Part shown: in pieces, positions 49,519 through 63,962 of the stretch
How the letters are laid out: the number at the start of each line of letters is the position of its first letter
Numbering within the stretch: the stretch's first letter is position 1
Source: Halopiger xanaduensis SH-6
GTDB taxonomy: Archaea > Halobacteriota > Halobacteria > Halobacteriales > Natrialbaceae
Reading direction: 5' to 3'
DNA: 64,000 nt
Assembly: GCF_000217715.1 (NCBI RefSeq)
Contig: NC_015666.1
Coordinates: forward strand, 2,182,270-2,246,269
Translations under genes and position numbers: made by a program
The notes under the pieces: generated by a model
The model's database searches: none
The model's input: only the letters and a program-made list of their open reading frames with translations
Told to the model about the DNA's origin: nothing

Positions 49519-49593
49519 GGGCGCTTAGCTCAGTCTGGACAGAGTGCTTGGCTTCGGACCAAGTTGCCGCGGGTTCAAATCCTGCAGCGCCCA
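49519..49593 (+). tRNA. tRNA-Arg (anticodon UCG)
   Basis: A complete cloverleaf of 75 nt: acceptor GGGCGCT paired with AGCGCCC plus discriminator A, D-arm with AGCTCAGTCTGGACAGAGTG, anticodon stem CTTGG/CCAAG closing loop CTTCGGA (anticodon TCG), and T-arm GCGGG-TTCAAAT-CCTGC. No CCA is encoded and no intron is seen. A CTTATACGG TATA-like box about 29 bp upstream fits a haloarchaeal promoter. The accessory region begins just after it, so its 3' end is the probable integration site. Confidence 0.96.
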
Positions 49594-49645
49594 TAACGCG
49601 CCATAACGATTAGGAGTCAACAGACGGCGTCGGGGTACTTTTAAA

Positions 49646-49889: not shown

Positions 49890-50249
49890 CTACCCGAGAT
49901 AATCTTCATCAATCAGCTTCTGAAGAGAGACGCCCTCAAGCCTGTAGAGGAGCTCTCCCAGTTCGCTATCGTCGTTGAACTGGTAGAGAGGGCTATGTCC
50001 GCCCTCAATATCCCGAGTGTGCTTGATGACATCAAGACGCTCCAGAGTGTCAATATTATTATAGACAGTACTACGGGCTACGCCAGCAAGCCGGGAGACC
50101 TCAGACACGCTAATATCCCGGCCCCGTTCGGAGATGAACGCCCCGATAATCTTCACCCGAGCACTGTCTCCAAAGAGATACGTCAGCGGCGCCTCCTCAG
50201 CATAGTGGTCAGTCTCAACCGCGGTCTGGTGAGTCGGCTGCTCAGTCAT
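49890..50249 (-). CDS. Winged-helix transcriptional regulator
   Basis: A 119-residue protein with a central winged helix (about 25-95). F-G-D-S-A-R-V-K-I-I-G-A-F is the first helix, and V-S-E-V-S-R-L-A-G-V-A-R-S-T-V-Y-N-N is the recognition part. A short C-terminal helix (L-L-Y-R-L-E-G-V-S-L-Q-K-L-I) ends the chain. Such small regulators are frequent on haloarchaeal plasmids and proviruses. It is the first island gene after the tRNA. Target unknown. Confidence 0.8.
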   Translation of the reverse strand: MTEQPTHQTAVETDHYAEEAPLTYLFGDSARVKIIGAFISERGRDISVSEVSRLAGVARSTVYNNIDTLERLDVIKHTRDIEGGHSPLYQFNDDSELGELLYRLEGVSLQKLIDEDYLG

Positions 50250-50406: not shown

Positions 50407-50688
50407 TTAATCGGTCCCGATGCCGAAGGGGACATCACCTCCGTTATCCTCGATGAATTCGATTGCCGCCTGCTCGTCCACGATGTGATAAGTTCCCGTT
50501 GCACCATACTCGGCCCAACCGGCTTTGTTTTGAGTCACCATCTCATCTAAAAGTTCCTTCCCCCGACCACGAGCGTGGCTGGGGAGGACGCAGACAATCG
50601 CTTCTTCGGGCGCATGACGCGCATTCTGGAATCCGCGCCGGAGCGCCTTCTCGGTCATCCGGACCTCCATCGCCTGGTCAGATACCAT
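50407..50688 (-). CDS. Hypothetical protein
   Basis: A 93-residue acidic protein I do not recognise. Visible segments include A-L-R-R-G-F-Q-N-A-R-H-A-P, E-A-I-V-C-V-L-P-S-H-A-R-G-R-G-K-E-L-L and A-A-I-E-F-I-E-D-N-G-G-D. The pattern suggests an alpha/beta fold with one central strand (I-V-C-V-L-P). No signal or membrane helix. It lies between the first regulator and the long repeat-bearing gap; both are on the minus strand. Confidence 0.6.
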   Translation of the reverse strand: MVSDQAMEVRMTEKALRRGFQNARHAPEEAIVCVLPSHARGRGKELLDEMVTQNKAGWAEYGATGTYHIVDEQAAIEFIEDNGGDVPFGIGTD

Positions 50689-51397
50689 TCGTGCGTTGTT
50701 GCTAGTCCCCCCACCAGTTTAAATCTTTTGTGGGGCTCGGTGATAATACCCTATATACGACTATAAATTATTGAACAATCCGTATCACACTTCCGGACCA
50801 GTCCGGCGCCCTCGGTCGCGTATGCTGAACCCATACCTACGGTCCGTCTTCGGCCTGGGATGCTCACATCGGGCGGCCGCATACGGTCTGACGTGGAACT
50901 GGTATGTCGTCTACGTGCGCGTACATCCCCTTTCTTATCGAACTGGTAGTCCAACCACGCCTCTTGGCTACCGGACGCCCATTGTCGAATAAGCCTGCTT
51001 GTAATGAACCCACCAACCTGTGCGACGTAGGGACGTGAATAATCCCATCTCTTATCCTACGTCACATATTGGCGAATTATGGGGAATAAGACCGCTCCTT
51101 ATTCAACACCTCATGTTAGCTGATTGGGAGAATAAGGTGATAGCTTATTCGCGCACTGCCAGATGAGTTCAATGATAGCGTGCACGCGTAACCGAGGTGA
51201 GTGGTTGCACGAGTTTCACGGCCCGGGGTGTCGTTAGTATGGTAGATTAAAATCGCAAGGCGTGAAACTGGCGGATGAAAAGCTATCTTGAATTCGACTC
51301 ATCAATACCATTCATTACATTGGATTAGAGCGAGATAGATTGGGGGGTGTAGCCGATAACGCAACTTTTTTATCTATGGGGTTTGTACATGGGAGTG
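50689..51397. other. Long intergenic region with inverted-repeat array (GHKL gene promoter)
   Basis: 709 bp without a convincing gene. It holds an AT-rich promoter-like CTATAAATTA near 50760, a weak 56-codon frame from ATG 50822 (+), and from 50987 four spaced GAATAAG-type inverted repeats. A TTTTTTATCT TATA-like box at about 51365-51374 lies about 26 bp before the GHKL ATG. A minus-strand frame (50751-50954) is also open; neither shows a recognisable domain. Confidence 0.6.
50987..51150. repeat. Array of GAATAAG-N7-CTTATTC inverted repeats
   Basis: Boxes 51084-51104 and 51130-51150 are exact GAATAAG-N7-CTTATTC (7-bp arms, 7-bp spacer). The box at 51037-51057 is a near copy (GAATAAT-N7-CTTATCC). 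At 50987 only the left arm GAATAAG is intact. Starts are 50, 47 and 46 bp apart, 4 to 5 helical turns. Regular spacing suggests cooperative protein binding: operators for the downstream ATPase gene or replication iterons. Confidence 0.75.
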
Positions 51398-53683
51398 ATG
51401 AACGGTTCCGACACTTACGACCTCAAGCCGTCCAAGGAAGCGTATCAGGCTGTTAAGTCCGACGTTACTCCTGTGTCGGCTTTTAAGGAGCTCGTGGACA
51501 ACGCGCTCGATAACTGGCGGCGCGTCCTCGATGGGCTCGACCCGGTGACTATTGAGATTGAGTACCACGATGGCGGGCCGGATGGGGAGGACGAGGTTGT
51601 TATTCGTGACGATAGCGGTGGTGTTGAGGAGGACGACCTCCAGATTCTCTTTGCCCTTGGTCAGTCGAAGAAGGAAGATATTGCCGGCTCTATCGGTGCC
51701 TACGGCATTGGCGCGAAGAAGGCCATCCTCAACCTCGGGAATAAGGCGACTATTCGTAGTCGCCACATGTACGCCGATACCGGCTTCGGGTTCACCATCG
51801 ACGAGGAGTGGCTTCAGGATGACGAGGATTGGACTGTCGAGAAGGAGGAGTACGAGGACATTGAGGCGGGGGTCACTGAGATTCGCATTAGCGACCTCAA
51901 CACTCCTTGGAATAAGTACCGGGAGAACCTCGTTGAGGACCTCAGCAAGACCTACCAGTACTTCCTGGACCCCGACAGGATGGAAGACTTCGAGCCCGTC
52001 TCTATTATCATCCGTGAGTACGATACGGATGGGGAGGCCACCGATACGATTGAGGTGGAGCCTCCTGAGCCTGTTGACTGGTCGTTCACTCCGATGGATG
52101 GCTTGTTCGTGCGCCGCTACGAGGGTATTGACCTCCAGTCTAAGGAGTTTGAGGCCGAGGTCACTCTGAACGTGACTGTCGGTCTCATGAGGGAAGCCAG
52201 TGCCGAGGATTCCGGGGCGGACATCTTCTGCCAGAACCGTCTCGTTCTTAGCGGGGTCACGGATGAGCGTGCTGGCTTCGGTATGGGTAGCAATTCGTCC
52301 AAGCTCGGGAAGTTTTCCGGCCAGCACCGGAGGCTTCGCGTTATCATCGAGTTCGAGACGGAGGGCGACGCGCGGATTCTTCCTTGGGACGCCCAGAAGT
52401 CCGACATCGACCCGTACACCCGGGTTTCCCGCGCTGCCCGCGATTGGATTGGTCGCATCGTTAGGCCCTACTACCTTGCTGCGGGCGCCTACGACCACGT
52501 CCCCACGACGCTCACTCGTCCCTACGACAGGGACTGTGAGCATTCCGTCACCAAGCATCTTGACGACCCCTACGATTACGAGGGTCGCAAGCGGGTCATG
52601 CACAAGCCTGATACCGACTTCTCGGATGCGAAGGAGATTACGGAGCGGGTCGATGTGACTACCGCTCTTCGGATTTACTCGCCGGACCCGCTCCCTGATG
52701 AGTTCGAGCCTGCCTACCGGGAGGAGTTCCTGCGTACCCTTCGGGATGAGTACGACATCGACGTGGACCGTGAAGAGTCGATTCCGACTCCGTTCATTCC
52801 GGCTGCTGAGGTTCCCGATGACCTGGATATGGATGAGTCCCACCGGACGCGGATGAACCTGACCCAGCACGCGCGTGAGGACGCTGCTGTGGACCCGCCC
52901 CAGCGCAAGGTTGGGTTCCCTGACTGGCAGCAGCCCCTTTATGACACGTTGCTTCGGGAGCAGATTCTGAGCCAGCAGGCGGATGAGGACGCTGATAAGG
53001 AGCCCGCTCAGCGTACTGTCGGGTTCCCCGATTGGGGGCAGGCTCGTTATGAGGAGTTGCTCCAGGAGAAGCTTGATTCCGATGTCGACCTCGAAGAGCT
53101 GGAGACGGTCGAGCTTGGTTACGACTTCGATGTTGAGGAGTTGAAGACTAGCGAGGTTGATGAGGACGAGGAGAGCGACGAGCCGGAGGAGCCTGCCGAG
53201 GGTGAGGAGACTGACGAGCTGGAGGAGTCGGACGATTCTCCTGACATCGATGGGGAGACTGGCGAGCTGGAGGAGTCGGACGATACTCCTAACATCGACG
53301 AGGAGACTGACGAGCTGGAGGAGTCGGACGATACTCCCGACATTGATGAGGAGAGCGATGTCGAGAGCATTGATTCCGAGAGGCCGGCGTCCGATGTCGG
53401 CAAGTCTAGCGGAGAGAGTGTCGATGGGGTTGATACGGATGACGAGCCTACCCAGATTGAGTTGTCGTCCGATACTGGTACGTCTTCTACCGCCATTACG
53501 CCTCACGACACCGACGACAGTGAGACGACGATTGAGACGAGTGGCCAGGTGTTGGAGCTGACCGACGAGCAGTGGAACACCCTTGTCGAGGCGCTTGGGC
53601 TCGACGAGGATGCCACCACTGAGGAGGTCCGGGAGCGGCTCTTCGAGACGATGGATACCCTTCGGAAGCTCCCGACGTCGTAG
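51398..53683 (+). CDS. GHKL ATPase, MORC/MutL-like
   Basis: A 761-residue protein (ATG 51398; 51389 also in frame). Bergerat-fold motifs: F-K-E-L-V-D-N-A-L-D (Asn35), D-D-S-G-G (71-75) and G-S-I-G-A-Y-G-I-G-A-K-K (97-108). A transducer-like domain follows, with L-P-W-D-A-Q-K-S-D-I-D placing Lys334 where MORC/MutL/gyrase proteins hold a phosphate-sensing lysine. Residues about 500-560 contain two copies of a V-G-F-P-D-W unit. An acidic 16-residue triple repeat (about 605-652) and a C-terminal helical domain (L-T-D-E-Q-W-N-T-L-V-E-A-L-G-L) complete it. No nuclease motif is seen. Codon use is richer in T-ended codons than in the core genes. Function unknown; a defence role is plausible. Confidence 0.85.
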   Translation: MNGSDTYDLKPSKEAYQAVKSDVTPVSAFKELVDNALDNWRRVLDGLDPVTIEIEYHDGGPDGEDEVVIRDDSGGVEEDDLQILFALGQSKKEDIAGSIGAYGIGAKKAILNLGNKATIRSRHMYADTGFGFTIDEEWLQDDEDWTVEKEEYEDIEAGVTEIRISDLNTPWNKYRENLVEDLSKTYQYFLDPDRMEDFEPVSIIIREYDTDGEATDTIEVEPPEPVDWSFTPMDGLFVRRYEGIDLQSKEFEAEVTLNVTVGLMREASAEDSGADIFCQNRLVLSGVTDERAGFGMGSNSSKLGKFSGQHRRLRVIIEFETEGDARILPWDAQKSDIDPYTRVSRAARDWIGRIVRPYYLAAGAYDHVPTTLTRPYDRDCEHSVTKHLDDPYDYEGRKRVMHKPDTDFSDAKEITERVDVTTALRIYSPDPLPDEFEPAYREEFLRTLRDEYDIDVDREESIPTPFIPAAEVPDDLDMDESHRTRMNLTQHAREDAAVDPPQRKVGFPDWQQPLYDTLLREQILSQQADEDADKEPAQRTVGFPDWGQARYEELLQEKLDSDVDLEELETVELGYDFDVEELKTSEVDEDEESDEPEEPAEGEETDELEESDDSPDIDGETGELEESDDTPNIDEETDELEESDDTPDIDEESDVESIDSERPASDVGKSSGESVDGVDTDDEPTQIELSSDTGTSSTAITPHDTDDSETTIETSGQVLELTDEQWNTLVEALGLDEDATTEEVRERLFETMDTLRKLPTS
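53210..53353 (+). repeat. Three 48-bp tandem repeats inside the GHKL gene
   Basis: Units at 53210-53257, 53258-53305 and 53306-53353 encode T-D/G-E-L-E-E-S-D-D-S/T-P-D/N-I-D-G/E-E. They differ by only a few bases, implying recent duplication or slippage. Copy number probably varies between strains. The segment is acidic and likely disordered. Confidence 0.9.
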
Positions 53684-55094: not shown

Positions 55095-55715
55095 TCACAG
55101 TTGGACGGCCGACATCTCGCGGCCGATGGTTTCGGGTTTCGGTTTCGCTAGGTAGGGCTCAATCGCCTCATAGCTGCTCCATCCCCCAATTGACATCATT
55201 ACACGTACTGGCACGTCTTCATCTACGAGGTGGTGCGTTGCCCAGCTTCTCCTCAGGTCGTGGCTGGAGACCGAGAGCCAGCGGTCACTGCGGGTTCCTT
55301 CTTTTCCATCGTTCGAGTGTACGTCCTCAGCCGCCTCGGAGACCCAGCGCCGGATAGAGCTGGTCGAGGCGTCAACGAACGGTTCATCATCGGCGATGCT
55401 ACGCTCATCCGCGTAGATGTCCAGCATGTCTTTGATGCGACCGGGGAGGTAGGCGTCCCGAGTCTTCTTCTCCCCGCCCCGGGTGTTCTTTCCCTTGAGT
55501 TCGAGTTCCCAGTACTCGCCCTCGCTGTTCCAGTTGATGCCTTCAGGCCGCGCGGACGGGACCCCGCTTGCACGGGAACCGACAAATCCCATCAGGCGCA
55601 TTGCGATTCCGCGTTCCCAGTCGACTGTGCGGGCGGCCTTGGCGATGTCCTCGACCTCGTCGGGGTAGTTTAGCCAGCACTTCGTTCGCTCACCGGAGTC
55701 GTCAATCCTAACCAT
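55095..55715 (-). CDS. Tyrosine recombinase, catalytic domain only
   Basis: A 206-residue XerC/D-type recombinase. The catalytic set is legible: Arg48 (V-G-S-R-A-S-G-V), a Lys in L-K-G-K-N-T-R, His152-x2-Arg155 (S-H-D-L-R-R-S-W-A), Trp179 (G-G-W-S) and nucleophile Tyr188 (P-Y-L). It lacks the ~100-residue N-terminal core-binding domain, either naturally short as in some haloarchaeal elements or truncated; the region upstream (55716-56177) holds no in-frame extension. It could resolve or invert element DNA. Confidence 0.82.
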   Translation of the reverse strand: MVRIDDSGERTKCWLNYPDEVEDIAKAARTVDWERGIAMRLMGFVGSRASGVPSARPEGINWNSEGEYWELELKGKNTRGGEKKTRDAYLPGRIKDMLDIYADERSIADDEPFVDASTSSIRRWVSEAAEDVHSNDGKEGTRSDRWLSVSSHDLRRSWATHHLVDEDVPVRVMMSIGGWSSYEAIEPYLAKPKPETIGREMSAVQL

Positions 55716-56177: not shown

Positions 56178-57728
56178 ATGGCCCGAGAGGACACGGATTT
56201 ACCGTTTGGTGACGCGTTCTCACCCGCTCAATTGGAGACAGGAAAGGGTGAGCCGGCGGAACTGGTTGTCTTGCTGGAAATGGCGAAGAAATATGAAGGT
56301 CAACCAGATGACTTCGACCAAGCCATTGCCGACCGGTTCTTCTCCGATTCTAACGAGCCAAGCGTACGTGCGAAGAACGTACGTCTCGGAATGCGTGAGG
56401 GGGCAGGATACGGTATCGTACACGAGGACCTGTCGTTCACTGAGATTGGGGAGGAACTGTACGAACTACGAGACGATGAAGAGTCGATGTTCGAACAGTT
56501 CGCCGTCCACATCCTCCAAGAATTGCACGGGATGAAGGTCATCCAGATTATCGAGGACCTGATGGCCGAGGGGAGGCAAACGACGAACGCAAACATCAAA
56601 GAGGCGTTACGGAACCAGTACGGATTCCACGTCGACAGAACAAGCAACCACTGGTCACAGATGCGGGCGTGGTTGGCGAAGACCGGCGTTGTAAACACCG
56701 GCATCCACATCTACGACCTCGACCGAAATCGTCTCGAAGAACTCGTCGGTGTCGACTCAGATGCTATCCTCGAACTCGACGGTCTTACCGAGGAGCAGCA
56801 GACTTTCTTGCGAGGTCTCGCTCTCATCGACCCAGTGAAGCCGATTCCAAACACAGAGGTTCGCAAAGTCGCTGAGGCCGCGTATGGCGTCGAGCTTCCT
56901 CAGAGCAAGATTTCGGACCTCATCCTGAATCCGCTCGAAGATTCGGGGTACATCACCTGGAAGAATCCATCTGATGTAACGGGTAAACCCAACCTCGTGG
57001 AACCGACCGACCAGTTTGAGGCAGAGGTCATGAAACCCGTATTGGAGGACATCAGTGAGCGTACTGGTGTACCCCGCCCTGTCCTCCGCCTCTCGTTTGA
57101 CGAAATCTCCGAGCGGTTGGACTCCGACTCCACACACGAAAAAGGGGTCGCACTGGAGACCCTCGCCGTGAAGATAGGACGAATGCTCGGCTTGGAGTTC
57201 GCCGGGTGGCGCGTCCGCGGTCAGAAGACCGGCGGGTCCGAGGTCGACGTAGTGATGGACGAAGTCGACACAACGTTTGGTCGGTGGCAGATACAATGCA
57301 AGAACATCAAGGACGACCTCGAAACCAAGCACGTGGCCCGAGAGGTCGGCATCGCTCGGATGCTGCAAACGAATACCATCTTGATGGTAGCCCGCTCAGG
57401 TCTCTCGGGTGATGCAAAGCTGTACGCCAACCGCATTATGCGTCATGAGAATATCTCTATCCTGTTTCTCCACGGTGACGACCTCGACCAGTTCGACGAG
57501 AGGCCCGAACACCTCGCCGAGACGCTACAGGATGAGGCCAACCGTATCAAGACCCTCAAACGCCTCGACCGCCGTGACATGGTTGAGGAGGGTGACGGTG
57601 AAGGCAAGATGACGTACGATGAGGAGGAGGCTCTGGAAGAGTATCAAGAGGATATAGCGGAGTACATCACCGACGAAGAAGACGTGCAGAACTCGCTAAC
57701 CGATTTCGCCCCGGATGAGGACAGTTAG
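56178..57728 (+). CDS. Mrr-like restriction endonuclease (PD-(D/E)XK)
   Basis: A 516-residue protein. The nuclease core at about 322-400 shows G-V-A-L-E-T-L-A (Glu327), S-E-V-D-V-V (Asp357) and W-Q-I-Q-C-K (Gln373, Lys375), the D...QxK arrangement of Mrr-type enzymes. The ~300-residue N-terminal part contains winged-helix-like units, probably for DNA recognition, and the C-terminus is an acidic coil. Its stop overlaps that of a DNA methyltransferase gene on the opposite strand, consistent with a restriction-modification pair; a methylation-dependent (type IV) role is also possible. Confidence 0.85.
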   Translation: MAREDTDLPFGDAFSPAQLETGKGEPAELVVLLEMAKKYEGQPDDFDQAIADRFFSDSNEPSVRAKNVRLGMREGAGYGIVHEDLSFTEIGEELYELRDDEESMFEQFAVHILQELHGMKVIQIIEDLMAEGRQTTNANIKEALRNQYGFHVDRTSNHWSQMRAWLAKTGVVNTGIHIYDLDRNRLEELVGVDSDAILELDGLTEEQQTFLRGLALIDPVKPIPNTEVRKVAEAAYGVELPQSKISDLILNPLEDSGYITWKNPSDVTGKPNLVEPTDQFEAEVMKPVLEDISERTGVPRPVLRLSFDEISERLDSDSTHEKGVALETLAVKIGRMLGLEFAGWRVRGQKTGGSEVDVVMDEVDTTFGRWQIQCKNIKDDLETKHVAREVGIARMLQTNTILMVARSGLSGDAKLYANRIMRHENISILFLHGDDLDQFDERPEHLAETLQDEANRIKTLKRLDRRDMVEEGDGEGKMTYDEEEALEEYQEDIAEYITDEEDVQNSLTDFAPDEDS

Positions 57729-58750
57729 TCGAGTTCCGCGAACTCTTCGAAGTCGTCTAGGGCGCTCTGGTCCTCGTCGATGATTTTATCGATTTCCTCC
57801 ATCGTCATGAAGCGTACCTTGGAGGTTTGCAGGTATTTCTCCTGCAGCTCAAATGCGAGCCACTTGCGGCCGAGGTCTTGCGCGACACGCCCAGTCATGT
57901 TGCTGCCAGCGAAGATGTCGAGGACAGTGTCGCCCGGCTCGGACAAGAACCGGATGAAGAAATCGGGTAATTGTCTCGGGAACCGTGCTGGGTGCGAATC
58001 GACATCCAGCTTCTTGCACGCTTTGAGATAGTGTGTATTCGACGCGGTGTTGGCGATTTCGAGAAGATTCGGTGGGATAGACCCCTTTTCCTTTGGGTCG
58101 TCAAACTTATCGCTGATGTCGTGCCCAGAGGGTCTCTTCTTGTCCTTATATCCGTTCTCCATCAGCTCCTTCTGCGAGTCGGAATATTCCTGGAGAACAC
58201 GGACGTTGTCCGCCTCTGGCCGTTCGGTCTTTGAAAGGCACCAGACGTGGTTCACAGCGTCCTTGCAGCGGATACGCTCGATAGTGACCCACTGCGCTGG
58301 CGTAGGGAGCTTGGCAGGGTTGTACCAGTAGAAATCCTGTGCGAGGTGGAATGGGCCATCGCTACCGGCGAGGCGAGTGAGTAACTCGAAATGGTAGATA
58401 GAGCGGACTGGTTTGCCCTTTTCCCAACCGCCACCGATGTCGATGACCCAGCTACCGTCCTCCGTGAGAACGCGGTAAACCCGGTCGGCGAAGTCCATGA
58501 ACCAGTCGTTGTACTCGTCCGGGTCTTTGTTGCCATATTCCTTCTTCTTCTGGAGTCCAAACGGCGGAGAGGTGACCAGCAGGTCGATACTCTCCTCTGG
58601 CAACTCGTCCAGAAGCTCAAGGCTATCTCCGAGATACGCAGCCCCGTCATTTGTCTGGTAATAGGGCTCGGAGTCCAGCAATTCGGTCAGTTCAGTATTC
58701 CCATGCATCGTGGTCTCTTCGGGTTCGGTTGTTGTACGTGAGGATGCCAT
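57725..58750 (-). CDS. Beta-class DNA methyltransferase (probable N4-cytosine)
   Basis: A 341-residue SAM-dependent methyltransferase. The catalytic motif T-S-P-P-F (60-64) is N-terminal and the SAM motif D-I-F-A-G-S-N (278-284) is C-terminal, the beta-class order. T-S-P-P-F/Y favours N4-methylcytosine; N6-adenine is possible. H-P-A-R-F-P (253-258) is typical of this group. A variable target-recognition region lies between (about 140-245). ATG 58750 is used, though Met15 (58708) could be the start. Tail-to-tail with the nuclease with a 4-bp overlap. Confidence 0.9.
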   Translation of the reverse strand: MASSRTTTEPEETTMHGNTELTELLDSEPYYQTNDGAAYLGDSLELLDELPEESIDLLVTSPPFGLQKKKEYGNKDPDEYNDWFMDFADRVYRVLTEDGSWVIDIGGGWEKGKPVRSIYHFELLTRLAGSDGPFHLAQDFYWYNPAKLPTPAQWVTIERIRCKDAVNHVWCLSKTERPEADNVRVLQEYSDSQKELMENGYKDKKRPSGHDISDKFDDPKEKGSIPPNLLEIANTASNTHYLKACKKLDVDSHPARFPRQLPDFFIRFLSEPGDTVLDIFAGSNMTGRVAQDLGRKWLAFELQEKYLQTSKVRFMTMEEIDKIIDEDQSALDDFEEFAELD

Positions 58751-60629: not shown

Positions 60630-62348
60630 TTATCTTAAGGCGATGTCCGTATCGGTGATGTCGCCGTGTTCACGGGCGACTTTGAGCATTTCCCAGCAGT
60701 CCAAGCGTGAATGGTTTGGCAGCGGGGTGTACTCACCGGTGGCCGTGTCTGGGGTGTTCTCGTCGTCGCGGTCCGCTTCGGGTGACTCTTTGCTGGTGTC
60801 CTTCTCCACTCCGCGGAATTGACCGCTGAACCAGCCTTTGAGGCGCTCCCATGCGCTGTCCGTTTCGCGTTCCTTCTTGCGTTCGCGGCGTTCCTCGCGT
60901 GCTTCTCCGGGCGTCTTCCCTTCGTCGTTGATGGTGTCCTCGACGGTCCCTTTTGCCTCGGGGGTTTTCCAGGTGATGACGAGCGGCGTGCCCGGCGTCT
61001 TGCGAATGATGCCCGCCTCGTTGAACCTGCGAATGTAGTTGCGGACTGTGTCGTACGCGAGACCGGTCTTGTCCATAATCTCTTGGTAGGTCGCGCCTTG
61101 GTCGCCGCGCTCGTATAGGACGAGCAGGATGTCGCGGAACGAGTTGGTCTGTCGACGGCGCAGGTAGTCCTCGACGGCGTGGCGTAGGTCCGGGTCGTTG
61201 CGATAGGATTCGAGTTGCTGGCTCCGGGCAGACAGAGTGGGGGTCTCGACGCTGATTCTGCCTGTTTGGGCAGTGAAGTGCAGGTCGGAGACCAGTGCGT
61301 TCGCGTCGAGGCCAGCGAACCGCAGGTGTCCGATACAGATGCGGGCGAGGTGGTGGCGGACCTCGTCGAGGTATCGCCGATGGACTGTACCTTTCGCGGC
61401 CGCCTCTATCTTAGGGTGGTTGAGCGGGTCGTCGTCGGCTCGGAGATGTACGTTCTTGTCGTTATACGTCTTGAGCATAATGCCAGTGTCTGGCACACTG
61501 TCGTCGCAAAGGGATTCAGGCGTCTCGAATCCGATGGTATCGAAAGCGCCAGCGGCAGCGTCTACTCGCTTGATACCGTAGCGGCCGCGTTTGGCCTTTG
61601 CTCGGGATTCGAGGGATGCCCCTTGGATTTCCATGAGGGCGAAACTGTTCCCGATGGCGTGGACGACTCCCCGCTCGTACTCTTTGCTGTAACGGTAGTG
61701 GGCTTCAAGTTGACCGACATGTTCGGTAGCGGGGTACGGTTCATAGAGGTCATGCACCAGCGACTGCGCGGCGAGGTCGTCGAGGTCCGTGAATTCTTTG
61801 ACAAGGGCGCGGAGGTAGATACGGGCGACAGCGTGGGCATCTTCGAAGTTCTGCAAGTATGAACCCTGGACTTCGATGTAGCTTCCCTCTTTGCGGTCTC
61901 CGTCGTCGGCCTTCGGCCATGTGACGGCGTCGCCGCTGCTAGTCTCCATACCGTGGCTGCGCCGCCGGATGGTCATGCTCGCCTTCGCGGGCGTGCCCGG
62001 TTTCGTCTCGTCGGACTCGTACAGGCCTATCGAGTACTCATAGAGATTGCTGCCGTCGTAGTAGTGGTCTCCCTGCCATGACTTGATGCCGACGTAGTAC
62101 TCGGCGTCCCCCGCCGTGTGTGGCGGGTTAATAGGTCCGGCAAGGAACGGCTCGCGGTTCTCTTCGTCGCTATTGTGGAGTGATTGGACGAGCTTCCATA
62201 GCTTGAGGTACAGCTCGTTGTCATCGTTGAGCTGGTATTTCCACACACCTTTGTGGACAATAGGCTGACTCTCGAAGGTGTCTTCGACGAGTTCGAGAGT
62301 CGTTTTCTGTTTGCCAGTTGGAATGCTGGCGCTGTTCGTCAAACTCAT
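60630..62348 (-). CDS. Plasmid/provirus-type protein with winged helix
   Basis: A 572-residue protein. The N-terminal ~390 residues contain Y-Y-V-G-I-K-S-W-Q-G-D-H-Y-Y-D-G, R-G-V-V-H-A-I-G-N-S-F-A and L-A-R-I-C-I-G-H-L-R-F-A-G. A winged helix follows near 405-465 (A-T-Y-Q-E-I-M-D-K-T-G-L-A-Y-D-T-V-R-N-Y), then a charged Glu/Arg linker and a terminal helix. I recall similar proteins from integrated haloarchaeal plasmids and proviruses (DUF7845-type). Its size, wHTH and adjacent structured DNA suggest replication initiation or control; no polymerase, HUH or helicase motif is seen. Confidence 0.7.
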   Translation of the reverse strand: MSLTNSASIPTGKQKTTLELVEDTFESQPIVHKGVWKYQLNDDNELYLKLWKLVQSLHNSDEENREPFLAGPINPPHTAGDAEYYVGIKSWQGDHYYDGSNLYEYSIGLYESDETKPGTPAKASMTIRRRSHGMETSSGDAVTWPKADDGDRKEGSYIEVQGSYLQNFEDAHAVARIYLRALVKEFTDLDDLAAQSLVHDLYEPYPATEHVGQLEAHYRYSKEYERGVVHAIGNSFALMEIQGASLESRAKAKRGRYGIKRVDAAAGAFDTIGFETPESLCDDSVPDTGIMLKTYNDKNVHLRADDDPLNHPKIEAAAKGTVHRRYLDEVRHHLARICIGHLRFAGLDANALVSDLHFTAQTGRISVETPTLSARSQQLESYRNDPDLRHAVEDYLRRRQTNSFRDILLVLYERGDQGATYQEIMDKTGLAYDTVRNYIRRFNEAGIIRKTPGTPLVITWKTPEAKGTVEDTINDEGKTPGEAREERRERKKERETDSAWERLKGWFSGQFRGVEKDTSKESPEADRDDENTPDTATGEYTPLPNHSRLDCWEMLKVAREHGDITDTDIALR

Positions 62349-62810: not shown

Positions 62811-63962
62811 ATGAGCGAAGAAGAACAACCCTCCCCCACGGACCTCGCCAAGTTGGTCTCCGATAGTGTAGAGGACCTCCTCCACGATGCGGGGGTCGTC
62901 CCCAACCTAGAACCGATGACGCCCCGAGAAGCGGTCAATGAGTACTTCAAAGTGCGCGACTTGAAGCCGAAAACGAAGAACAAGCACGAGTCAAGCCTCG
63001 GGTTCTTCGTCGACTGGGGTGAGAACGTGGCCGGTATCAGCGAGATGAATTTCCTCTCCGGGAGCGACCTCAAAGATTACCGCGTATGGCGACGGGAAGA
63101 GTCGTCAGAACAAGTTGACGAACTGAGTCCCAAAACAGAGGAGACGGAGCAAAAAATCGTCCGTAAGTTCATCAAAGTATGCGGGACATTCGATGCTGTC
63201 CGCCCCGGATTGCACGAGCACGTACTCATCCCCGACCTAGACGATGAGGATGAGGTCCGCAATACGGTCCTCGATTCTGAAACTGTCAAACAAATCCTCG
63301 AACATCTCCGCAAGTACGAGTACGCCACCCGAGAGCACGTTATATGGGAGCTGTTCGCGTCTGCAGGGCCGCGACTCGGAGGCATCCGCTCGCTGGACGT
63401 GGACGACTACGAGCGCGGAGACTCAGGACCGTACCTCAAACTCCGCCACCGGCCTGATACGGAAACTACCCTCAAAAACGGCAAGGATGGAGAGCGCAAC
63501 GTCTTCATCTCCGAGTCTTTGGCGGAGGTGTTAGACGACTACATCAAAGACCAGCGCGAAGACAGCGAGGACAAGTTCGGACGTGAACCCCTGCTATCGA
63601 GCAAACAGGGCCGCCTCGCCGAGAGTACCATCCGAAACTACGTCTATGCTTGGACGCGGCCGTGCGTCCTTGGCAGAGGCTGTCCGTACGGAAAGGACCC
63701 AGACGAGTGTAAGGCAGCGCAGCGGAACAACTGGGCGTCACAGTGCCCGGGGAGCCTCTCGCCTCATCCTATCCGCAAGGGCTACATCACGCAAGAGCTC
63801 AACTCGGGAGTTCTGATGGAACACCTTAGCGACCGGTGCGACGTATCGGAGAAAATCTTGGAAAAACACTACGACAAGCGAACCGAGGCCGAGAAGATGG
63901 CCACCCGGAAGGAGGCCATGCAGGCTCTGACTCGGTTGGAACCAGGATACGGTGAGAAGTAG
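62811..63962 (+). CDS. Site-specific tyrosine integrase (haloarchaeal provirus type)
   Basis: A 383-residue integrase. An N-terminal core-binding domain (about 35-135) precedes the catalytic domain with Arg188 (A-G-P-R-L-G-G), Lys near 222, His319-x2-Arg322 (P-H-P-I-R-K-G) and Tyr354 (K-H-Y-D-K-R). Four cysteines (285, 291, 300, 312) just before the His-Arg motif form a likely zinc insert that I recall from haloarchaeal integrases. It would catalyse integration and excision. It is the last complete gene; a short minus-strand frame abuts it at 63963. Confidence 0.92.
   Translation: MSEEEQPSPTDLAKLVSDSVEDLLHDAGVVPNLEPMTPREAVNEYFKVRDLKPKTKNKHESSLGFFVDWGENVAGISEMNFLSGSDLKDYRVWRREESSEQVDELSPKTEETEQKIVRKFIKVCGTFDAVRPGLHEHVLIPDLDDEDEVRNTVLDSETVKQILEHLRKYEYATREHVIWELFASAGPRLGGIRSLDVDDYERGDSGPYLKLRHRPDTETTLKNGKDGERNVFISESLAEVLDDYIKDQREDSEDKFGREPLLSSKQGRLAESTIRNYVYAWTRPCVLGRGCPYGKDPDECKAAQRNNWASQCPGSLSPHPIRKGYITQELNSGVLMEHLSDRCDVSEKILEKHYDKRTEAEKMATRKEAMQALTRLEPGYGEK

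What the first reader, a model, noticed from the sequence alone, without database searches (positions are those of the whole stretch)
51037..53683. Island GHKL (MORC/MutL-like) ATPase behind a regularly spaced inverted-repeat array
Seen: complete Bergerat-fold motifs, a K334 transducer lysine, duplicated V-G-F-P-D-W units and a triple acidic repeat, with no nuclease domain; upstream are two exact and one near-exact GAATAAG-N7-CTTATTC boxes 46-47 bp apart. Known: MORC/MutL-type ATPases occur in restriction-linked prokaryotic systems (described by Aravind and colleagues). Inference: this may be an undescribed defence or DNA-topology system in which the ATPase autoregulates through the array.
Basis: partly seen in the sequence, partly recalled or inferred. 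Interest (0 to 1): 0.7.

Follow-up and report, generated by a model that had tools for sequence, protein, structure and literature searches.

The report
Mobile haloarchaeal MORC ATPase with operator array
A salt-loving archaeon carries, on a mobile DNA island, a distant relative of the animal and plant gene-silencing ATPases called MORC, preceded by a small array of identical DNA boxes; its relatives in other archaea sit next to DNA-methylating enzymes and several different antivirus systems, which suggests a reusable part of archaeal immunity.

Summary
ORF 51398-53683 encodes a 761-aa GHKL+S5 ATPase. Upstream are GAATAAG-N7-CTTATTC boxes at 51037 (2 mismatches), 51084 and 51130 (exact). The protein carries the published MORC-family signature GhXhhpXXRhl (GADIFCQNRLV, residues 273-283). 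Its family profile matches MORC2/3/4 better than MutL, TopoVIB or Hsp90, and no histidine-kinase dimerisation domain was found.

The gene is cargo of a 15.5-kb low-GC element integrated at tRNA-Arg. The box array is specific: across 391 Halobacteria genomes the exact palindrome occurs four times, three of them upstream of this gene or of its homologue in another genus (spacer 8 there); a reversed control gave none. Other homologues examined lack it. The binder is unknown, so autoregulation is not shown.

Homologues are not in random contexts. Eleven of 25 loci have a D12/Dam adenine methylase within about 100 bp on the same strand. These pairs adjoin DndFGH-like genes (in genomes without dndC) or Pycsar genes; the closest relative lies beside DrmA/DrmB and a methylase. 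The window copy has no operonic partner; the island's restriction-modification pair occurs elsewhere without it.

Verdict: a new haloarchaeal variant of the known prokaryotic MORC kind, probably defence-related; the array is a probable dedicated operator.

The parts
49519..49593 (+). tRNA-Arg (TCG), integration target
   Evidence: ARAGORN, Rfam
49581..49594 (.). attL core CCTGCAGCGCCCAT at the tRNA 3' end; exact copy (attR) 65078-65091, just beyond the window (L059:1078-1091); element about 15.5 kb
   Evidence: exact 14-bp repeat; GC 0.52-0.60 inside against about 0.66 outside; integrase genes at the far end
49890..50249 (-). 119-aa winged-HTH protein; candidate local regulator
   Evidence: HTH_IclR E=4e-6; no homologue in G062, which also has the boxes
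50407..50688 (-). 93-aa ORF divergent from the MORC gene, function unknown
   Evidence: no Pfam or NCBIfam match and no plasmid tblastn match
50987..51007 (+). possible degenerate box: left half-site GAATAAG only
51037..51057 (+). box 1, GAATAATCCCATCTCTTATCC (2 mismatches)
51084..51104 (+). box 2, exact GAATAAG-N7-CTTATTC
51130..51150 (+). box 3, exact GAATAAG-N7-CTTATTC
51342..51373 (+). likely core promoter: G-run 51342-51347 and TATA-like TTTTTTAT 51366-51373
   Evidence: sequence; similar order of elements upstream of the homologue in L038; inferred
51398..53683 (+). MORC-family GHKL ATPase (761 aa; alternative starts 51383 and 51389)
51470..51886 (+). GHKL (HATPase_c_3) domain
   Evidence: Pfam PF13589, E=8e-13
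52214..52246 (+). MORC-family signature GADIFCQNRLV (residues 273-283) in the S5 domain
   Evidence: motif from PMC2292703
52397..52399 (+). K334, invariant transducer lysine
   Evidence: alignment A1
52859..53074 (+). tandem duplication of the VGFPDW..Y unit (2 x 108 nt)
   Evidence: single copy in homologues
53168..53354 (+). acidic 48-nt repeats
55095..55715 (-). integrase remnant (206 aa)
   Evidence: Phage_integrase E=4e-7
56178..57728 (+). Mrr-like restriction endonuclease
   Evidence: PF04471 E=6e-6; occurs without MORC in two plasmids
57725..58750 (-). N6/N4 DNA methylase; same family as the methylase beside the closest MORC homologue (L005)
   Evidence: PF01555 E=1e-36; 55% and 41% identity in two stretches
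60630..62348 (-). DUF7845 + HTH protein of the element
62811..63962 (+). tyrosine-integrase-like protein; a second, convergent one occupies 63963-64982, mostly outside the window

Best explanation
The gene encodes a prokaryotic MORC-family ATPase, an ATP-gated dimeric DNA clamp built from GHKL and S5 domains, with a haloarchaea-specific C-terminal region. It is carried as probable defence cargo on an element integrated at tRNA-Arg. Relatives often pair with an adenine methylase and adjoin unrelated effector modules. The most likely role is therefore to sense or hold DNA of wrong methylation or topological state and license an effector. In the window the partner, if any, acts at a distance: the island methylase and restriction enzyme are the nearest candidates. 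The inverted boxes are operator sites of a dedicated dimeric regulator that controls the MORC gene. Shown: the MORC signature, the mobile element, partner linkage in homologues, and specificity and partial conservation of the boxes. Inferred: clamp action, defence role, regulator identity.
For: MORC signature with all GHKL motifs and K334. Profile hits: MORC2/3/4 E 5e-9 to 5e-7, then MutL 1e-4, TopoVIB 3e-4, Hsp90 family 4e-3. Fold matches to SMCHD1, TopoVIB and MORC2/3/4. Element: att repeat, GC drop, integrases. Homologues patchy, 24 of 391 genomes. D12 MTase within about 100 bp on the same strand in 11 of 25 loci. Pycsar genes in operon with MORC+MTase (L047, L049, L052) or convergent with it (L039). 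DptF/G/H after Dam+MORC in L043 and L044 and divergent in L033, with no DndC in those genomes. DrmA (E 1e-127), DrmB and a methylase beside the closest homologue. Boxes: 3 of 4 exact occurrences in 391 genomes lie upstream of MORC genes in two genera, control 0. Arms and spacer length are kept while spacer and flanks differ. Eukaryotic MORC2 acts as an ATP-dependent DNA clamp and compactor (PMC12216690).
Against: No partner gene is in operon with the window copy, and the island restriction-modification pair exists elsewhere without MORC. Boxes were found in only 2 of 25 loci; the closest homologue L005 has only a half-site. The candidate wHTH is not shared by the second box-bearing genome. AF2 mean pLDDT is only 61 and the C-terminal half is poorly modelled. 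No functional data were found for any member of this family.
Confidence: 0.6

Rival explanations
1. The ATPase binds its own box array. Either it autoregulates, or the array is a loading site at which the MORC dimer closes on DNA, as ParB does at parS.
For: MORC is the only gene found so far that is common to both box-bearing loci. Spacer length is constant within a locus but differs between loci, 7 against 8, as if it tracked a locus-encoded binder.
Against: No sequence-specific DNA-binding domain is recognised in the protein. The other homologues examined lack the array. Eukaryotic MORCs bind DNA with little sequence preference (own knowledge). Neighbouring genes were compared over about 20 kb only.
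Confidence: 0.2
2. The MORC works in one system with the island's Mrr-like endonuclease and N6/N4 methylase, as a restriction-modification accessory in the sense of Iyer et al. 2008.
For: Same element. The methylase belongs to the family found divergently beside the closest MORC homologue L005. MORCs are known neighbours of restriction-modification genes (PMC2292703).
Against: Genes are 2.5-4 kb apart with an integrase remnant between. The endonuclease with a methylase occurs without MORC in Haloplanus rubicundus and Roseivivax marinus plasmids. G062 has the boxes and MORC but no such methylase.
Confidence: 0.25
3. The window gene is an orphan relic: a defence ATPase separated from its methylase and effector, kept or decaying on a mosaic island.
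For: No operonic partner, nearby integrase remnant, no recognisable gene between about 53.7 and 55 kb.
Against: The 761-codon frame is intact, catalytic residues are kept, and the operator array and promoter resemble those of another genus.
Confidence: 0.2
4. The boxes act in RNA, as hairpins of a leader transcript.
For: The arms can pair as 7-bp stems; folding z = -2.1 in the window; in L038 box 1 both arms change together.
Against: In L038 the fold is no better than shuffles (z = -0.55) and box 1 does not form its own hairpin in the predicted structure. No Rfam match other than the tRNA. The likely TATA box lies downstream of the array.
Confidence: 0.07

Closest known systems
Prokaryotic MORC family in restriction-modification systems (Iyer, Abhiman and Aravind 2008, PMC2292703)
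   Same: GHKL + S5 architecture, basic transducer residue, GhXhhpXXRhl signature, sporadic mobile distribution, methylase neighbours; the closest homologue is beside an SF2 helicase (DrmA-like).
   Different: That paper found mostly cytosine methylases and three archaeal MORCs. Here adenine D12/Dam methylases predominate, with DndFGH-like, Pycsar or DISARM-like neighbours. The window copy is alone, with a box array.
Eukaryotic MORC2/3/4 and SMCHD1
   Same: Best solved-structure matches by profile (MORC2/3/4) and by fold (SMCHD1, MORC2/3/4).
   Different: No CW zinc finger or eukaryotic chromatin-reader domain found; haloarchaeal C-terminal region.
paraMORC1-5 (PMC2292703)
   Same: GHKL + S5, restriction-modification contexts.
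   Different: They lack the MORC signature, which this protein has; no nuclease or TIR extension found here.
mzaABCDE and the MORC-associated candidate system of PMC9523054
   Same: MORC-type ATPases linked to antiphage genes.
   Different: No Z1-helicase or AIPR family match among the island proteins scanned.
Tiamat (PADLOC TmtA)
   Same: Weak match confined to the GHKL domain, E=1.5e-4.
   Different: TmtA models are 1302-1655 positions long and match only about 100 positions here.

Membership tests
Prokaryotic MORC family | all GHKL ATP-binding motifs | tested here: met
   ExxDNxxD, DxxGG, GxxGxG invariant in 22 homologues; Pfam E=8e-13
Prokaryotic MORC family | S5 domain with signature GhXhhpXXRhl | tested here: met
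   GADIFCQNRLV 273-283; 0.3% of shuffled window proteins contain it. Most homologues have the relaxed form (T at the second position or a polar residue after R)
Prokaryotic MORC family | basic residue of the S5 domain (K/R finger) | tested here: met
   K334 invariant
Prokaryotic MORC family | closer to MORC than to other GHKL families | tested here: met
   MORC2/3/4 are the best profile hits; by fold SMCHD1, TopoVIB and MORC2 score similarly
Prokaryotic MORC family | operon with SF2 helicase, methylase or nuclease (typical, about 70%) | tested here: inconclusive
   Not met for the window copy; DrmA-like helicase and methylase near L005; methylase operons in 11 of 25 loci
Sensor histidine kinase | HisKA/DHp dimerisation domain beside HATPase | tested here: not met
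   no such Pfam match; S5-like strands follow the GHKL domain in the model
MutL | better match to MutL than to MORC; C-terminal endonuclease domain | tested here: not met
   MutL profile E about 1e-4 against 5e-9 for MORC2; NCBIfam MutL far below cut-off; no MutL C-terminal Pfam match
Tiamat | full-length TmtA match | tested here: not met
   GHKL stretch only
mza system | Z1 and AIPR partner genes | tested here: not met
   absent among the island proteins scanned with Pfam
DISARM (locus L005) | DrmA, DrmB, DrmC plus methylase | tested here: inconclusive
   DrmA and DrmB matched, but below NCBIfam cut-offs; methylase present; DrmC not identified
Any anti-virus defence system | measured protection | not testable with these tools
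   needs challenge assays

The most novel reading that the evidence does not exclude
MORC plus an adenine methylase is a portable self/non-self front end of haloarchaeal immunity. It is plugged separately into a DndFGH-like restriction module that does not depend on phosphorothioation, into Pycsar cyclase/membrane-effector signalling, and into DISARM-like helicases. In the box-bearing lineage the MORC dimer itself recognises the inverted array as its operator or loading site.
Probability: 0.22. Interest if true: 0.8.

Novelty: new variant of a known kind. Interest (0 to 1): 0.52.

Why it matters
MORC proteins silence transposons and methylated DNA in animals and plants, and their prokaryotic kin were proposed in 2008 as restriction-modification parts without, to my knowledge, a direct test of an archaeal member. 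Haloarchaea offer loci where MORC and an adenine methylase adjoin effector modules (DndFGH-like, Pycsar) in compact sets, so the question of what an ancestral-type MORC does could be tested in a genetically tractable archaeon. The DndFGH-like genes without dndC would also qualify the published statement that DndFGH is confined to bacteria and would suggest a methylation-coupled form. The operator array gives a direct handle on regulation.

Tried and rejected
Histidine kinase, MutL, Tiamat and mza membership: rejected. The PDB sequence search with the single protein gave only chance hits; the family profile resolved it. Further viral-contig scans with subfamily alignments found no relatives; the eight distant viral hits served only as rows for structure prediction. 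A search for two-box arrays in viral contigs found three contigs; genes near the match were read in two of them and no MORC gene was seen: treated as chance. The third exact-box genome, G218, has the box (spacer 6) between an acyl-CoA-dehydrogenase-like gene and a regulator-like gene: chance. The island wHTH as the shared regulator: no homologue in G062. The 93-aa divergent ORF: no relatives on plasmids. A trans-acting Dam in the window genome: its only D12 methylase is unlinked, about 22% identical to a Dam-type partner and about 30% to the Pycsar-type partners. An in-phase fourth box at 50987: only its left arm fits and its spacing is 50 bp, so it is not counted.

Full report
Observation. 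The ORF and the array are as described. The frame is 761 codons from ATG 51398 (longer starts at 51389 and 51383). Two exact GAATAAG-N7-CTTATTC boxes (51084, 51130) and one with two mismatches (51037) are spaced 47 and 46 bp. The expected number of exact boxes in the 700-bp intergenic stretch is about 3e-6, and none of 3000 Markov shuffles gave a repeated exact dyad. The two exact copies share only arms and spacer length, which is the mark of protein-binding sites rather than of a recent duplication.

What the protein is. All GHKL motifs and K334 are invariant in an alignment of 22 homologues (A1). The S5 region carries GADIFCQNRLV, which fits the GhXhhpXXRhl motif that Iyer et al. used to separate MORCs from all other GHKL proteins (PMC2292703); most homologues keep it in a slightly relaxed form. 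The family profile finds MORC2, MORC3 and MORC4 structures first (E 5e-9 to 5e-7), then MutL, TopoVIB and Hsp90-type proteins. The AF2 model is weak overall (pLDDT 61; GHKL and S5 parts mostly 60-90; C-terminal half poor). Foldseek on it gives SMCHD1, TopoVIB, MORC2/3/4 and TRAP1; the MORC3 and MORC4 matches have the lowest rmsd of the fifty listed, about 6 A. No histidine-kinase dimerisation domain or nuclease domain was found.

Where it lies. A 14-bp repeat of the tRNA-Arg 3' end (CCTGCAGCGCCCAT, 49581) recurs at 65078, just past the window. The stretch between is GC-poor (0.52-0.60 against about 0.66) and ends in two convergent integrase-like genes. The MORC gene, an Mrr-like endonuclease, an N6/N4 methylase and a DUF7845 protein are its larger cargo. 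The endonuclease with a neighbouring methylase is found without MORC on Haloplanus rubicundus and Roseivivax marinus plasmids, so the pair can stand alone. The island methylase is nonetheless related (55% and 41% in two stretches) to the one divergently adjacent to the closest MORC homologue, L005.

Homologues and their partners. The single-protein search hit 24 of 391 Halobacteria genomes, in 19 of 86 genera. A family profile added weaker and more distant members and found few outside the class. Neighbourhoods of 25 loci were compared. Eleven have a D12/Dam adenine methylase within about 100 bp on the same strand; ten are, and the eleventh is L052, whose MORC gene is interrupted by a transposase-like gene. 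In L047 and L049 the order is MTase-MORC-PycC-PycTM with gaps of at most 61 bp. In L052 it is MORC-MTase-PycC-PycTM with a different D12 methylase. In L039 the Pycsar genes are convergent with MORC-MTase. In L043 and L044 MORC-Dam is followed by DptF, DptG and DptH homologues; in L033 these genes are divergent. The three genomes concerned have no DndC match, whereas a 2019 study reported no archaeal DndFGH (PMC6459918). Beside the closest homologue L005 lie DrmA (E 1e-127), DrmB (5e-33), an N6/N4 methylase and a HerA-like ATPase. DrmA and DrmB score below the NCBIfam cut-offs and DrmC was not found, so 'DISARM-like' is as far as I go. Other clades adjoin TFB-like and UvrD-PDDEXK genes. No methylase motif was found near about ten loci, so the pairing is frequent, not universal. 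The neighbour ORFs were called with a simple composition score, so small genes may be missed.

The array. In 391 genomes the exact palindrome with spacers of 6-9 occurs four times: twice here, once upstream of the MORC homologue in G062 (another genus of the family), and once in G218 between unrelated genes. The reversed control gave none. G062 has a second box, AAATAAG-N8-CTTATTT, 54 bp away, with both arms changed together. A G-run, a TATA-like element and the start codon follow in the same order in both loci, with the array further upstream (about 215 bp from box end to TATA in the window, about 105 bp in G062). No other homologue has a convincing repeated dyad; the best of the rest, L039, was reached by 2 of 100 shuffles. 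The boxes are therefore a specific, conserved but lineage-limited property of this MORC gene. A dimeric winged-helix regulator is my preferred binder: haloarchaeal TrmB is known, from memory, to use half-sites 7-8 bp apart. The island wHTH is a candidate, but it has no homologue in G062. Binding by the MORC itself remains possible.

Mechanism. Eukaryotic MORC2 is an ATP-driven DNA clamp and compactor (PMC12216690). A clamp that closes on DNA and signals, through its C-terminal region, to exchangeable effectors would explain the methylase pairing and the varied neighbours. For the window this is inference by homology. No step has been measured.

Novelty. Prokaryotic MORCs and their restriction links are known, and MORC-associated antiphage candidates have been named (PMC9523054). 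The haloarchaeal adenine-methylase pairing with DndFGH-like, Pycsar and DISARM-like neighbours, and the operator array, I did not find described in the papers searched. Most subscription journals are not in that library.

Noticed in passing
L033, L043, L044 (DptF/G/H homologues): DndFGH/DptFGH-like genes in haloarchaea beside Dam + MORC, in genomes without DndC; a 2019 paper states DndFGH is not found in archaea. This suggests a methylation-coupled form.
   Followed up: partly
L047:8411-13007, L049:143-4723, L052:8077-13992, L039:5911-10435: Pycsar cyclase and PycTM effector next to MORC + D12 methylase; same-strand operons in three loci, convergent in L039, with two different D12 methylases.
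   Followed up: partly
L005:254-14144 (Haloquadratum MAG): DISARM-like DrmA/DrmB beside N6/N4 methylase, MORC and a HerA-like ATPase.
   Followed up: partly
L052:8838-10004: A transposase-like gene interrupts the MORC gene of an otherwise intact MORC-MTase-Pycsar operon.
   Followed up: no
L046:5-3624, L048, L050, L056: TGT/DpdA-like, DpdC-like, BrxC/D-like and one unannotated protein recur together within about 10 kb of some MORC homologues; possibly a 7-deazaguanine DNA-modification set.
   Followed up: no
L035:6572-7678, L048, L050, L053: TFIIB-repeat (TFB-like) gene divergent from or near MORC in some clades; may be a dedicated transcription factor.
   Followed up: no
L060:2310-3902 (IMG/VR contig): A 530-aa GHKL relative on a contig with a terminase-like gene; also a 275-aa gene just upstream.
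   Followed up: no
window 56178-58750: Convergent Mrr-like endonuclease and N6/N4 methylase on the same tRNA-Arg element.
   Followed up: partly
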